A DNA stretch of 64,000 bases from a virus, in IMG/VR virus record IMGVR_UViG_3300005915_001138, positions 1-64,000 of that record. One strand, given 5' to 3'. Shown here piece after piece: positions 48,897 to 59,566 of this stretch. Numbering within the stretch: the first letter of the stretch is position 1; each line of letters begins with the position of its first letter. A program made the translations under genes and the position numbers. The notes under the pieces were generated by a model that had not been told where the DNA came from, did not search any database, and saw only the letters and a program-made list of their open reading frames with translations.

Positions 48897-50435
48897 TTAT
48901 CCCTCCATATCTTGTGCCTCTTGCAAGAGCCGTTTCTTTGTTTCACCTAATCCAGTTGAAAGAGCTACCTTATAATATTCAGGATTTAGAAGTCTCTTGA
49001 ATTCATCATCCAATCTATCTAGATGAAGTATTACATCGGTTCTTATTTGTGCAATAGTTCTAGTATCTACGTTGACAGTCGATCCATTTACAAAAACATC
49101 ATCTAATAGATTCACCCTTTTATGGGCTCCTCTTATTTTTACTTCCTTCCAGAGATTGGTTGCGTCAGTTACAACAACAGTTCCAACTCCGGCGACATTC
49201 TTCGCTTCCCCTTGTTCGTATATCACATCCCCAATTGGTGAATCAGTTTCATCCAAAAATCGAACGACATCGTGACGCCCAGGGTTTGTTATTTTGTCTA
49301 TATTTGATGAAACTTTTATTTTAGGAGCCCAAGTTTCTCCCTCCTTCACTGCTACCAATTTGTAGACTCCGCCAAGAGCTGGTTGATCATATGCTGTAGT
49401 GAGTTTTGTTCCAACTCCCCAAGCATTAATTTTGGCACCTTGTCTCTTAAGATCTGCAATCAAATGTTCGTCAAGGTCATTCGATGCGACAATGAGAGGA
49501 TCTTTGAACCCTGCATCTACAAACATCTGGTGTGCTTGTTTACTTAGCTTTGCAAGGTCACCGGAGTCTAATCGTATTGCTGGTCTAATCATCGGATTGT
49601 GTTTTGCCAGTTCTTTAAATACTGTTATTGCATTTGGTACACCTGATCTAATAGTGTCGTATGTATCTACTAACAGCGCACAACTTTCTGGAAAGGTATC
49701 AGCATATGCTCGGAACGATTCAATCTCAGTATCGAAGATCATTACCCATGAGTGAGCCATTGTTCCTTTGACTGGAATTCCGAAGTATTTATGTGCAAGA
49801 GTATTTGATGTTGATGAACAACCACCAATGTATTGTGCGCGCGATGAAGATAGAGCACCATCGGGGCCTTGTGCTCTTCTCAATCCCATGTCAAGTACCA
49901 TTTCATGGTTAGCTGCTCTTACCATTCTGGCAGCTTTTGTCGCTATTAAAGTTTGAAAATTAAGAAAATTAAGGAGGGCACTCTCAATTAATTGACACTG
50001 AATTAATGGACCTGAAACTTGGACTAGGGGCTCGCCAGGGAAAACAAGTGTTCCCTCTTTAGCAGCCCTGACCGTGAGTTTCAGCTCCATATTTTTCAAG
50101 TAATTTAGATATTCGCCTGTAAACATTTTAGTACGTTCTAAAGTATATATGTCATCCTCAGTGAATCTGAAGTGCGTGAGATACTTGAGAACAGATTGGA
50201 TTCCACAGAAGACACCAACTCCATTGTGCTCAGGAAGACCTCTGAAGAAATATTCAAAGCATGATTCATCTTCTGCTTTGCCAGTCTTAAAAAACCCTGC
50301 ACCCATTGTTAATTCGTAGAAGTCTGTAAGTAATGCCAGTCCGCGTCTATCAACCCATGGATTGGAACTTTCTCCACTCGTCGCGTCAACAACCTTGGAA
50401 GACATACCATCCTCCATACCAGGTGGTGCTTTCAT
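48897..50435 (-). CDS. pncB: Nicotinate phosphoribosyltransferase
   Basis: It converts nicotinate and PRPP to nicotinate mononucleotide. The 512-residue protein (start ATG 50435, with GAAAGGAT upstream) shows nicotinate-type motifs: LLTDFYELTMGAGFF near the N-terminus, MGLRRAQGPDGALSSSRA, HSWVMIF, IRLDSGDLAKLSKQA and VGTKLTTAYDQPALGG. The start TDFYELTM favours nicotinate over nicotinamide (NAMPT) as substrate. It is separated from the upstream genes by a terminator and begins the NAPRT-NadE-DHH transcription block. Confidence 0.88.
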   Translation of the reverse strand: MKAPPGMEDGMSSKVVDATSGESSNPWVDRRGLALLTDFYELTMGAGFFKTGKAEDESCFEYFFRGLPEHNGVGVFCGIQSVLKYLTHFRFTEDDIYTLERTKMFTGEYLNYLKNMELKLTVRAAKEGTLVFPGEPLVQVSGPLIQCQLIESALLNFLNFQTLIATKAARMVRAANHEMVLDMGLRRAQGPDGALSSSRAQYIGGCSSTSNTLAHKYFGIPVKGTMAHSWVMIFDTEIESFRAYADTFPESCALLVDTYDTIRSGVPNAITVFKELAKHNPMIRPAIRLDSGDLAKLSKQAHQMFVDAGFKDPLIVASNDLDEHLIADLKRQGAKINAWGVGTKLTTAYDQPALGGVYKLVAVKEGETWAPKIKVSSNIDKITNPGRHDVVRFLDETDSPIGDVIYEQGEAKNVAGVGTVVVTDATNLWKEVKIRGAHKRVNLLDDVFVNGSTVNVDTRTIAQIRTDVILHLDRLDDEFKRLLNPEYYKVALSTGLGETKKRLLQEAQDMEG

Positions 50436-50455
50436 ATCCTTTCCTTTCAAAAAAT

Positions 50456-52734: not shown

Positions 52735-53280
52735 TTACATAGACAAAAGGATTTTTAGGTTTTGTTCGAAATCAGTTAATACATGAGGAATAATTCTCGG
52801 ATCAAGGAGTCCTCCTAATTGATCATGTTCCTCACGCAACAGATGTTTTCTTATATCTTCTCCGGCTACATCATAAGAGCCAGGCCCAGTTCTATTTACT
52901 ATCTTAAATCTCATATCATTATTAACAAAGAAACTAATATCAAATTCACTTCCACTATAAAATATTGGATGAACATCTTGCCCATAAAAAGCTAATTTAA
53001 TTGTATCTTTTAGTTCGGCAAGCCACTCAGCCAAGTCATCAAGAAAGTTTCTTCCACCATGATCCCCCAATCCTATTAGACGGGCAGTTTCCCCATACAC
53101 CATTCTAATGTACGATGTCCTCTGCCTGTAAGAAAATATGTTTCTATGAGTAATAATTTCATTTGAACTTCCTAGTATTATAAGATAATCTCGGCCATAG
53201 TCTAATCTCATTTTTTCTATAACATGTTGGTGTCCTAAATGAATAGGGCACATTCTTCCTAGGAACACTCCGACATCCAT
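52735..53280 (-). CDS. Nicotinamide/nicotinate mononucleotide adenylyltransferase
   Basis: It joins NMN or NaMN with ATP to give NAD+ or NaAD. The 181-residue protein has FLGRMCPIHLGHQHVIEKM (HxGH nucleotidyltransferase motif, residues 7-25), a SYRQRTSYIRM segment and DVAGEDIRKHLL, the counterpart of the ISSTxxR motif. The size fits NadM/NadR-type enzymes. With NAPRT and NadE in the same strand this completes a nicotinate-to-NAD+ route. AAAGGAT precedes the ATG, and a tRNA-Ser gene is directly upstream. Confidence 0.8.
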   Translation of the reverse strand: MDVGVFLGRMCPIHLGHQHVIEKMRLDYGRDYLIILGSSNEIITHRNIFSYRQRTSYIRMVYGETARLIGLGDHGGRNFLDDLAEWLAELKDTIKLAFYGQDVHPIFYSGSEFDISFFVNNDMRFKIVNRTGPGSYDVAGEDIRKHLLREEHDQLGGLLDPRIIPHVLTDFEQNLKILLSM

Positions 53281-56227: not shown

Positions 56228-56269
56228 ACCGGTTCCTCCTCGTTGAGCATATCGTTTGTTGAGTAAAGA

Positions 56270-56302
56270 AGCCCGGAGCCGAATTCCCGTCGACTCCGGG
56301 CT
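56270..56302 (-). terminator. Terminator-like hairpin downstream of the permuted tRNA-like gene
   Basis: On the minus strand AGCCCGGAG and CTCCGGGCT pair over 9 bases with a 15-base loop, followed by TCTTTACTC. It should end the transcript carrying the permuted tRNA-like element. Confidence 0.7.
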
Positions 56303-56397
56303 GATTGCCATCTTTTATTATAAGATTTCATGTCTTACATGTTGATGGGCCCGTGTTGATCTCTCTCATTCTTCCTCTGCAAAACCTTCAGTCTTAG

Positions 56398-56477
56398 CGA
56401 GCATGTCCTACCGTCTAGACGACCAGGCCGATGATATTTATGGGGGCCTGGACGAGAATCGAACTCGCGTCTGCTCG
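56398..56477 (-). tRNA. Circularly permuted tRNA-like gene
   Basis: On the minus strand the 3' half comes first (56477-56441): anticodon-stem strand CGAGCA, T-arm GCGAGTTCGATTCTCGT, acceptor CCAGGCC, base C and CCA. After an 11-base spacer (56440-56430) the 5' half follows (56429-56398): acceptor GGCCTGG, TC, D-arm GTCTAGACGGTAGGAC, A and TGCTCG. GGCCTGG pairs perfectly with CCAGGCC (7 of 7), and TGCTCG with CGAGCA (6 of 6). The D-arm resembles tRNA-Glu. A short frame directly after TGCTCG encodes AKTEGFAEEE then stop, so a two-piece permuted tmRNA is an alternative reading, though a standard tmRNA is also present. Anticodon cannot be assigned. Confidence 0.65.
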
Positions 56478-56667
56478 TTGATTGATTTCACCAGGATATA
56501 AAGAGAGGGTTCTATGTTGAACCTGCGAGCTGAATCTGTGGGTCTCAATAATCTGACTCTGACCATGGGTTTTTAGAAGAGATTCGTAACCTCTCCAATT
56601 TCCCAATCGTTGAATCTGAATCATAAGACTTACACTAGACCCAGCCTCCACAGGGGAGGCTCAATGC
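56478..56667 (-). other. Structured non-coding stretch upstream of the permuted tRNA-like gene
   Basis: No convincing gene. On the minus strand it has hairpins GAGCCTCC/GGAGGCT (about 56664-56643), GGAGAG/CTCTTC (56596-56576) and GGTTC/GAACC (about 56528-56513). It may be leader RNA, or part of the permuted RNA. The remaining gap from 56303 to 56397 also has no gene. Confidence 0.45.
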
Positions 56668-57465
56668 CTATTCGGAGGATTCTGACAGAGCTTCGTCTCC
56701 ATCCAGAATGTACGCAAGAAGTTTCTCGGAGTATGTCTGCTGATTCACTGTTGCAGTGTTCGCAGCCATTCGTGCGGCACGGGTTGCCGAGATGATGTCA
56801 TCACAACGCGCCAGAATCCCTGATTTGGTGAGGGGCGTAACCGCACTCGACTGGTGGGACTTCAGTATCTTCGCTACACGAACGTCCTTCACCTGGGGTT
56901 GGACTTGTGCGGCATGCTTTTCCGTAGCCGGTGAAAGTTCGAGTGAGACTGTTTCCTTTTCCGTTCTTGTGGTCAGCTCCTCTGGGGAAGAGTATACCCC
57001 TTCTTCCGCTACAGTTGTCAACTCAGTCCAAACCTTACCCGGAGCAAGTGTTGGAACTTGATGAAGCAGTTCGCGAATGGTACTCATCCTCTTCTCTAGA
57101 TACAGAAGCTCCGCCGCTGGCACGTCTTTCGCCACCGTGACCCCATTGACGATCAAGTCAGCTGTGGCTATGGTGTTGGTGCGTTCTTTGGATGTACCGA
57201 GATTGAATGCCTGTGCAGCATGTGCGAACACATACCGAAGCTTTCCGTAGACGGTCTCTTCCATCCGCTTCACTTCGGTTTTGTTCTCTTGGAGCGCTCG
57301 CTCATCATCGTAGAACTCGACCGAGGTGGTGAGTCCGTCGAAGTGGCCTCGCCGCTCCTGGAACGTCTTTTGTGCTTCTCTGAGAAATCCGATAAGTAGT
57401 TTGGATTTATCGTTATCGGCTGCAAGAAGCGCATGCAGCTGATTTCTATTTTCATTGCTTGGCAT
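56668..57465 (-). CDS. Hypothetical protein, GC-rich
   Basis: 265 residues. The N-terminal two thirds are helical (QLHALLAADNDKSKLLIGFL; EVKRMEETVYGKLRYVFAHAA), with LLYLEKRMSTIRELLHQVPTLAPG as a conserved-looking core; the C-terminal part is low-complexity. GC content and codon use are much higher than in surrounding phage genes, which suggests recent transfer. It lies inside the tRNA cluster. No family recognised. Confidence 0.6.
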   Translation of the reverse strand: MPSNENRNQLHALLAADNDKSKLLIGFLREAQKTFQERRGHFDGLTTSVEFYDDERALQENKTEVKRMEETVYGKLRYVFAHAAQAFNLGTSKERTNTIATADLIVNGVTVAKDVPAAELLYLEKRMSTIRELLHQVPTLAPGKVWTELTTVAEEGVYSSPEELTTRTEKETVSLELSPATEKHAAQVQPQVKDVRVAKILKSHQSSAVTPLTKSGILARCDDIISATRAARMAANTATVNQQTYSEKLLAYILDGDEALSESSE

Positions 57466-58440: not shown

Positions 58441-58522
58441 ATGGTGGAGGTGGCGGGACAGGTGGATCCAATGCTTTCGCAAAGGCCTGGACTATACCTT
58501 CATCTCGAAGCCCTATCCTAAT

Positions 58523-58539
58523 GAGGACAAACTATAAAC
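58523..58539 (+). promoter_or_regulatory. Late promoter-like motif of the intron endonuclease
   Basis: GAGGACAAACTATAAAC, one base from consensus in its first half, lies 19 bases before the endonuclease ATG and inside the intron. A separate late promoter is usual for phage intron endonucleases. Confidence 0.5.
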
Positions 58540-58558
58540 TTCAAGAGGAGTGCGTATT

Positions 58559-58993
58559 ATGAAAGATTCACAACTGAATGATTCCTATGCTGCTGGGTTG
58601 TTTGATGGCGAAGGAAGTGTAACGGTGACCAAACAGAAACGATCAGATCTATGGAGAAGACCCATTGTTTCTATTGCAAGCACAACGTATGAACTACTAG
58701 AGTTCATGAAAGCCAATTATGGTGGGTGCATATCCCATAAGAAAACCTACAAAGATCACCACAAACCGTCGTTTGTTTGGGCAATACAAGGTAGGAAGGC
58801 CATACAATTCCTAGAACAACTTCGACCTTATCTCCGAGAACCGGATAAGATCCGACGTACCGATCTTCTGATAGATCGGTATATTGAAGTAACCCCACGG
58901 AATGGGAAGTACAACAACGCCGCCACTATAGCAAAGGAACAATTTCAGGAAGAATTTTTCCATCCTAGTACACCATGTCTCAGTGAGAGTTAG
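58559..58993 (+). CDS. LAGLIDADG homing endonuclease, antisense within the intron
   Basis: 144 residues from ATG 58559, chosen because AGAGGAG lies 9 bases upstream (an in-frame GTG at 58550 has no spacing). One LAGLIDADG motif is present as YAAGLFDGEGSVTV (about residues 9-22), so it should act as a homodimer. The catalytic acidic residue is in the DGEG part. The gene is on the strand opposite to the tmRNA and intron, so its mRNA is antisense to both. It would promote spread of the intron into tmRNA genes. Confidence 0.85.
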   Translation: MKDSQLNDSYAAGLFDGEGSVTVTKQKRSDLWRRPIVSIASTTYELLEFMKANYGGCISHKKTYKDHHKPSFVWAIQGRKAIQFLEQLRPYLREPDKIRRTDLLIDRYIEVTPRNGKYNNAATIAKEQFQEEFFHPSTPCLSES

Positions 58994-59566
58994 GTGTCTA
59001 TAAGTCTCTACAGGGCTTTTGGAATTTCTTCCTCAACCCCACGGTATTGGCTTATCGTATTGCACGACTTAGCTTTCACCGTATGAGCACTCTTTAATCG
59101 AGGGAATTACTTCCCAAGTCGACCAGATTGATCGAACCCGCGTCCGTCAGTGTATCCGCACAAGCGTCTACGTACATAGCCTTTCATTTAGTTTCAGCTC
59201 AGAACCCGTCAGGCACGGTTCCTTTCGCCTATACCACTAGTAAGTACTCTTCTCGGTTACAAGTGATTACATCTTACCGAGTCCAGTCCCTCTGTCGTTG
59301 TCTCATCCCATAGAGGGCGTCTAGAACGAGACAGCTAGTTCATCCGATTAGGCAGCAAGTGCGAACGCGGGGGCCGGAGCCACAACATCTGCGATCTTGG
59401 AAGCCACACGGCTAGCGAAGTCTACTACGTTTTTCGCAATTAAGCGTTTTCCGATTTTTTACGAGGCCATCGGAGTCCTCGGTACGCAACTCATCCTTCC
59501 ATTCACCCACGTCGAAACCAGGTCACCCCCACAAAGATGAAACCTGTTAGTCACTATTTAATATAT

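What the first reader, a model, noticed from the sequence alone, without database searches (positions are those of the whole stretch)
56398..56477. Circularly permuted tRNA-like gene in a phage
Seen: the 3' half of a tRNA (T-arm GCGAGTTCGATTCTCGT, acceptor CCAGGCC, C, CCA) precedes its 5' half (GGCCTGG, D-arm GTCTAGACGGTAGGAC, TGCTCG) by an 11-base spacer. Both the 7-base acceptor pairing and the 6-base anticodon-stem pairing hold between the halves. Chance pairing of both with correct spacing is very unlikely. Known: permuted tRNAs exist in a red alga and some archaea, and permuted two-piece tmRNAs in some bacteria. The frame after TGCTCG encodes AKTEGFAEEE and a stop, which would suit a tmRNA tag, but the window also has a standard tmRNA. 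Either reading would be remarkable for a phage.
Basis: partly seen in the sequence, partly recalled or inferred. Interest (0 to 1): 0.88.

Follow-up and report, generated by a model that had tools for sequence, protein, structure and literature searches.

The report
Phage tRNA-mimic RNA paired with DUF7873
This phage carries a gene of unknown function (DUF7873) followed by an RNA that looks like a transfer RNA with its two halves in swapped order; the same gene-plus-RNA pair recurs in hundreds of bacteria and phages, which points to an undescribed RNA-protein machine related in design to bacterial Y RNAs.

Summary
On the minus strand at 56398-56477 a full tRNA cloverleaf is encoded in circularly permuted order: T arm, 3' acceptor strand, C-CCA, 11-nt spacer, 5' acceptor strand, D arm. 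It is not isolated. It lies about 190 nt downstream of a DUF7873 gene (PF25283) and just before an intrinsic terminator. A strict scan finds the same permuted element within 900 nt downstream of DUF7873 in 234 of 254 loci from actinobacteria, other bacteria and many phages; controls gave 0/254 antisense, 1/255 upstream and 0/1270 shuffled. Rotating the halves back makes ARAGORN call a tRNA in 318/332 elements (58/332 with halves swapped between elements). 155/332 encode CCA exactly at the tRNA position. Each element caps a long basal stem, often two arms in tandem. That is the architecture of YrlA, the Ro60-bound bacterial Y RNA, but the neighbouring protein is DUF7873 and most of the complete phages checked lack Ro60. 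The tmRNA reading is not supported. Most likely this is a Y-RNA-like, tRNA-mimicking RNA partner of DUF7873: a new variant of a known kind. Binding, expression and processing are untested.

The parts
56668..57465 (-). DUF7873 protein gene (265 aa), putative protein partner of the RNA
   Evidence: Pfam PF25283, E 1.1e-52, 179.7 bits against cut-off 27; AF2 model pLDDT 94.1, pTM 0.81, no significant fold match
56540..56642 (-). RNA arm 1: long imperfect hairpin with a simple hairpin head (GGAGAGGTTACGAATCTCTTC); counterpart of arm 1 of the actinobacterial RNA (inferred)
   Evidence: fold of 56262-56667 minus: -142.2 kcal/mol against -114.2 +/- 6.2 in shuffles, z -4.5, 0/100 shuffles as good
56478..56508 (-). 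5' strand of the basal stem of arm 2
   Evidence: duplex with the 3' flank -31.8 kcal/mol against -18.4 +/- 4.6 for swapped partners, rank 1 of 144
56398..56477 (-). Permuted tRNA-like head of arm 2 (anticodon-stem 3' strand, T arm, acceptor, C-CCA, lid, acceptor, D arm, anticodon-stem 5' strand)
   Evidence: sequence; covariance model built without the window scores 50.3 bits, E 1.1e-11, best hit of the window; weak full-length match to Rfam YrlA, 24.5 bits
56452..56468 (-). T arm, 5/5 stem, loop TTCGATT
56445..56451 (-). acceptor 3' strand CCAGGCC
56430..56444 (-). acceptor lid: discriminator C, CCA, then 11 nt
   Evidence: CCA at this exact position in 155/332 elements, at most a few at other offsets
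56423..56429 (-). acceptor 5' strand GGCCTGG
56405..56420 (-). D arm GTCTAGACGGTAGGAC
56361..56397 (-).
56270..56302 (-). Intrinsic terminator directly after the RNA (13-bp stem, T-rich tail)
   Evidence: a terminator-like hairpin follows the RNA in actinobacteria too

Best explanation
The element is the tRNA-mimicking head of a structured noncoding RNA that forms a two-part module with the upstream DUF7873 gene. The RNA is made as the 3' part of the DUF7873 transcript and ends at the terminator. Its ends pair into a long basal stem, and the distal end of that stem is a tRNA cloverleaf lacking an anticodon loop, which is why the tRNA halves appear in swapped order in the gene. By analogy with YrlA, where the basal stem binds Ro60 and the head recruits a nuclease, DUF7873 most likely binds the stem while the head docks host or phage enzymes that recognise tRNA. 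Shown: the architecture, its covariation, its near-constant adjacency to DUF7873, and CCA at the tRNA position in about half of the elements. Inferred: co-transcription, binding by DUF7873, and the docking role of the head. Open: whether the acceptor lid is cut (RNase P and 3' processing) to leave a free CCA end.
For: Strict permuted element downstream of DUF7873 in 234/254 loci against 0/254 antisense, 1/255 upstream, 0/1270 shuffled; 370 hits/251 kb against 21/2.9 Mb elsewhere. Consensus structure of 70 actinobacterial loci: two long arms capped by permuted tRNA heads, with compensatory changes in both basal stems. Basal stems stronger than with swapped partners in all groups, Z of means -4.5 to -12; window rank 1/144. 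Anticodon stem 5/5 in 204/332 against 41 expected. Rotated elements called tRNA by ARAGORN 318/332 against 58/332 swapped and 0/332 in native order. Ro60-adjacent Y RNAs in the same host genomes have the same T arm-acceptor-lid-acceptor-D arm order. No other conserved neighbour gene in 240 loci. TROVE absent from the 152-kb record, the 275.5-kb sister contig and 6 of 7 isolate phage records that carry the module.
Against: No expression, binding or processing data. Adjacency and co-conservation do not prove that DUF7873 binds the RNA. Free-energy folding of the window element alone does not give the cloverleaf and is unremarkable (z -0.99). DUF7873 matches no known RNA-binding fold, so a Ro60-like role rests on analogy. 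The CCA at the tRNA position is more than YrlA usually has and may mean a different mode of action.
Confidence: 0.6

Rival explanations
1. Two-piece, tRNA-like effector. RNase P cuts 5' of the acceptor, 3' processing leaves a CCA end, and the head becomes a two-piece tRNA-like RNA that is charged with an amino acid or used by tRNA enzymes, as in two-piece tmRNA.
For: CCA exactly after the discriminator in 155/332 elements; discriminator conserved by element type (A in 64/76 first elements, T in 50/65 second elements of genomes). U(-1) in 185/332, and C(-3) in 140/143 genome elements. G1-C72 dominant.
Against: Half of the elements lack CCA, and some lids are long hairpins closing the acceptor (92 lids of 16 nt or more, mean MFE -7.4 against -3.0 shuffled). 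CCA in elements follows CCA in flanking tRNA genes only weakly (17/26 against 16/35). No conserved anticodon seen.
Confidence: 0.25
2. Cis-acting element. The permuted tRNA-like arms are a 3' UTR structure controlling stability or processing of the DUF7873 mRNA (for example cleavage by RNase P), with no separate RNA product.
For: In almost all loci sense and shortly downstream of the DUF7873 stop, followed by a terminator.
Against: Two elaborate arms with complete tRNA features are more than an mRNA end needs; the same shape is a trans-acting RNA in YrlA.
Confidence: 0.1
3. A circularly permuted tRNA gene as in red algae and archaea, spliced and circularised to a decoding tRNA.
For: 3' half before 5' half; rotated halves read as tRNA.
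Against: The known route uses bulge-helix-bulge motifs and tRNA splicing endonuclease (PMC3978253), an enzyme not known from bacteria (own knowledge); here the flanks form long basal stems.
Confidence: 0.03
4. Permuted tmRNA with tag AKTEGFAEEE.
For: T arm-acceptor-CCA order; 13-bit beta_tmRNA fragment.
Against: Canonical D arm, no match to a tmRNA model beyond the T arm and acceptor, proposed tag lies in the basal stem, and a tmRNA already lies in the window.
Confidence: 0.01
5. Chance: 3' half of one tRNA next to the 5' half of another in a tRNA cluster.
For: Tandem ordinary tRNAs reach 33-47 bits with the model R1.
Against: 7/7 acceptor complementarity, conserved adjacency to DUF7873 also in bacterial chromosomes, massive covariation.
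Confidence: 0.01

Closest known systems
YrlA / bacterial Y RNAs (Rfam RF02553)
   Same: Long stem from the paired 5' and 3' ends plus a tRNA-like domain in the order T arm, acceptor, D arm; found in bacteria and phages (PMC8394870, PMC12282133).
   Different: Neighbour is DUF7873, not Ro60/Rsr; an anticodon-stem-like helix and, in half of the elements, CCA at the tRNA position; often two arms in tandem; scores 24-38 bits against a gathering score of 69 (Ro60-adjacent actinobacterial Y RNAs score 38-54 here).
Circularly permuted tRNA genes of unicellular algae and archaea (PMC3978253)
   Same: 3' half precedes the 5' half; junction at the anticodon loop in some of them.
   Different: No sign of bulge-helix-bulge splicing; the flanks are long stems; no conserved anticodon seen; bacteria and phages.
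Permuted two-piece tmRNA (Rfam RF01849-RF01851, RF04321)
   Same: T arm-acceptor-CCA-spacer-acceptor order.
   Different: Has a real D arm and anticodon-type stem, no tag region supported.

Membership tests
YrlA bacterial Y RNA | tRNA-like domain in T arm-acceptor-D arm order | tested here: met
YrlA bacterial Y RNA | long basal stem formed by the RNA ends | tested here: met
   window -31.8 against -18.4 kcal/mol, rank 1/144
YrlA bacterial Y RNA | Rfam RF02553 gathering score (69 bits) | tested here: not met
   24.5 bits for the window, 28-38 for relatives; note that Ro60-adjacent actinobacterial Y RNAs also miss it (38-54 bits)
YrlA bacterial Y RNA | encoded next to Ro60/Rsr (TROVE) | tested here: not met
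   encoded next to DUF7873; no TROVE in the window's record or its 275.5-kb sister contig; both may be fragments
YrlA bacterial Y RNA | bound by Ro60/Rsr | not testable with these tools
   needs biochemistry
Circularly permuted tRNA gene | 3' half before 5' half, halves form one cloverleaf | tested here: met
Circularly permuted tRNA gene | bulge-helix-bulge at the junction and maturation to a decoding tRNA | tested here: inconclusive
   flanks form long basal stems with internal loops; no explicit BHB test; no RNA data
Permuted tmRNA | match to a tmRNA covariance model | tested here: not met
   only a 13-bit beta_tmRNA fragment, gathering 84
Permuted tmRNA | tRNA-like domain without a D stem | tested here: not met
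   4-bp D stem present
Permuted tmRNA | conserved tag reading frame | not tested
   no codon-level test made; the segment coincides with the basal stem
DUF7873 protein family (PF25283) | score above Pfam cut-off | tested here: met
   179.7 bits against 27

The most novel reading that the evidence does not exclude
DUF7873 and its RNA are a Ro60-independent machine in which tRNA-like heads are cut open by RNase P, receive free CCA ends and act as real, possibly aminoacylated, two-piece permuted tRNAs: the first permuted tRNAs known to be used in bacteria and phages.
Probability: 0.22. Interest if true: 0.95.

Novelty: new variant of a known kind. Interest (0 to 1): 0.8.

Why it matters
A protein family of unknown function, found in about half of the Streptomyces species sampled (41 of 81) and in phages of very different hosts, turns out to have a near-constant RNA neighbour that mimics tRNA. 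This gives a concrete handle on DUF7873, suggests that Y-RNA-like tRNA mimicry extends beyond Ro60, and offers a large set (332 unique elements) for asking why a tRNA shape is kept while its anticodon is discarded.

Tried and rejected
Permuted tmRNA with the tag AKTEGFAEEE: rejected (tag lies in the basal stem). Ro60 in the window's phage: searched, not found. Reading the repeated period-6 stretches (AAGCTGAAACTGAAG..., KLKLKF) as coding exons split by permuted tRNAs: considered, dropped because in 70 actinobacterial loci they form the covarying basal stem; the similar CAAACTNAAACT stretches of Vibrio and Rhizobium phages are not explained by this. Three extra R1 hits in the sister contig (33-47 bits): artefacts of adjacent ordinary tRNAs, so R1 alone is not specific. 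Alignment A1 was too diverse for a collection scan; split into A2 and A3. DUF7873: no PHROGs, NCBIfam or PADLOC match, no PDB sequence match; Foldseek E 0.017 at best and VIA Z 6.6 at rmsd 13 A to TolC, both at noise level, do not exclude a known fold. A literature search for DUF7873 found nothing; key Y RNA papers (PMC4201824, PMC6281776) are not held.

Full report
WHAT IS THERE. The minus strand of 56398-56477 encodes every part of a tRNA except an anticodon loop, in the order 3' half, 5' half. The acceptor pairs 7/7, T stem 5/5, D stem 4/4 and anticodon stem 6/6. A C-CCA follows the acceptor 3' strand exactly where a tRNA has it. A scanner requiring a full T stem with a TTCRA loop, a full acceptor, a 3-60 nt spacer and at least 3 D-stem pairs finds only this element in the window.

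SURROUNDINGS. The element lies about 190 nt downstream, on the same strand, of a 265-aa gene that matches Pfam DUF7873 at E 1.1e-52, and before an intrinsic terminator at 56302-56270. Folding the whole stretch from the DUF7873 stop through the terminator (56667-56262) gives z -4.5: a first long hairpin arm with a plain head, a second arm that carries the permuted head, then the terminator. The basal stem of the second arm is stronger than the swapped pairings with relatives (rank 1 of 144). A 275.5-kb contig carries the same 15.3-kb region at 100% identity.

RELATIVES. DUF7873 occurs in phages of Rhizobium, Klebsiella, Vibrio, Gordonia and others, in many IMG/VR contigs (106 and 207 confirmed stretches in two scans, possibly overlapping), and in at least 439 stretches of bacterial genomes; the 80 kept are mostly Actinomycetota with single MAGs assigned to Deinococcales, Ktedonobacterales/Chloroflexi and Polyangiaceae. 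It is patchy: 3/149 genomes sampled across the phylum of a Streptomyces (the centre genome included), 41/81 in that genus. Using the strict scan in the 900 nt downstream of the stop, 16/17 named loci, 77/80 genome loci and 141/157 viral loci carry the permuted element; antisense 0/254, upstream 1/255, shuffled 0/1270. Most bacterial loci have two elements about 145 nt apart. Fourteen of the 20 loci without a strict hit have a hit of 30 bits or more with the model R1 downstream of the gene, though R1 cross-reacts with tandem tRNAs. These loci are not a random sample: the searches kept the 80 best per scan, and some are near-duplicates.

STRUCTURE. In 70 actinobacterial loci RNAalifold gives two long arms, each capped by a permuted tRNA head, followed by a terminator-like hairpin, with many compensatory pair types in the basal stems as well. 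On 82 elements from viral contigs and phages the T, acceptor and D stems show 384 cells changed on both sides against 117 in shuffles, covariation score 0.797 against 0.192. Caution: the scanner required those stems to pair, so this count is conditioned; basal stems and anticodon stem were not required and still stand out (anticodon stem 5/5 in 204/332 against 41; basal stems). Rotating the native halves gives a tRNA call in 318/332, swapped halves 58/332, native order 0/332. A covariance model built without the window finds the window element at 50.3 bits, E 1.1e-11; the next hit in the window has 20.4 bits.

TRNA-LIKE DETAILS. CCA follows the discriminator in 155/332 unique elements, at other offsets in at most a few; the discriminator is A in 64/76 first elements and T in 50/65 second elements of bacterial loci. 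Just 5' of the acceptor there is a Y-R-U preference (C at -3 in 140/143 bacterial elements), not followed in the window (ATC). These favour, but do not prove, processing by tRNA enzymes. Against this, many lids are closed hairpins, and CCA in the element tracks CCA in flanking tRNA genes only weakly. The D arms look like those of different tRNAs in different loci (window Glu-like, Vibrio phages Ser-like, bacterial second elements Gly-like with U73); this is recognition by eye, not tested.

COMPARISON WITH Y RNAs. YrlA has a basal stem that tethers Rsr/Ro60 and a tRNA-like domain that binds PNPase (PMC8394870), and phage Y RNAs near Ro60 homologues are known or suspected (PMC12282133, PMC7765460). 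In host genomes that have Ro60, the Ro60-adjacent Y RNAs have the same permuted order, with mostly short lids lacking CCA. The present RNA thus works, in anatomy, like a Y RNA. It is not filed as one: its neighbour is DUF7873, the Rfam YrlA threshold is not reached, and TROVE is absent from the window's record and its sister contig, from 6 of 7 isolate phage records, and from 13 of 24 host genomes. Ro60 and DUF7873 loci do lie 6-8 kb apart in Rhizobium phage RHph_Y65 and Nonomuraea aridisoli, so a functional link is possible.

DUF7873. The AF2 model is confident (pLDDT 94.1), with no significant match in PDB or BFVD. No other gene is conserved around it in 240 loci.

JUDGEMENT. The best reading is a Y-RNA-like tRNA-mimic RNA with a new protein partner. 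I found no description of it in the open literature searched, which is incomplete. Nothing here shows expression or binding.

Noticed in passing
window 58442-59530 (-): The tmRNA gene is split in its T loop: 5' part 59530-59131, 3' end TCCCGCCACCTCCACCA at 58458-58442, with a 672-nt insert that carries a LAGLIDADG ORF on the opposite strand (58550-58993). Probably a group I intron; Rfam did not call one.
   Followed up: partly
window 48897-50450 (-) and 52735-53280 (-): A nicotinate phosphoribosyltransferase (589 bits, NCBIfam) and a weak nicotinamide-nucleotide adenylyltransferase-like protein close together: a possible phage NAD+ salvage pair.
   Followed up: partly
window 60374-63996 (-): Neighbouring kinase-like, PP2C-like and vWA-like proteins (weak Pfam matches), resembling a phosphorylation signalling triad.
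   Followed up: no
L010 3266-3600, L008 3239-3560: Repeated CAAACTNAAACT stretches between DUF7873 and the permuted element in Vibrio and Rhizobium phages, without an obvious complementary strand; not explained.
   Followed up: no
L012 3530-3720, L014 3140-3250: Gordonia phages carry, before the permuted elements, a further tRNA-like piece in normal order and a hairpin with the conserved loop ATGCAGC.
   Followed up: no
L167 4980-5058 (-): A strong permuted element (78.8 bits with R1) on the strand opposite to the DUF7873 gene, about 1.2 kb away.
   Followed up: no
L278 8179-8334, L279 2766-2905: Tandem ordinary phage tRNAs can mimic the permuted order and reach 47 bits with the model; a pitfall for anyone searching for this RNA.
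   Followed up: yes
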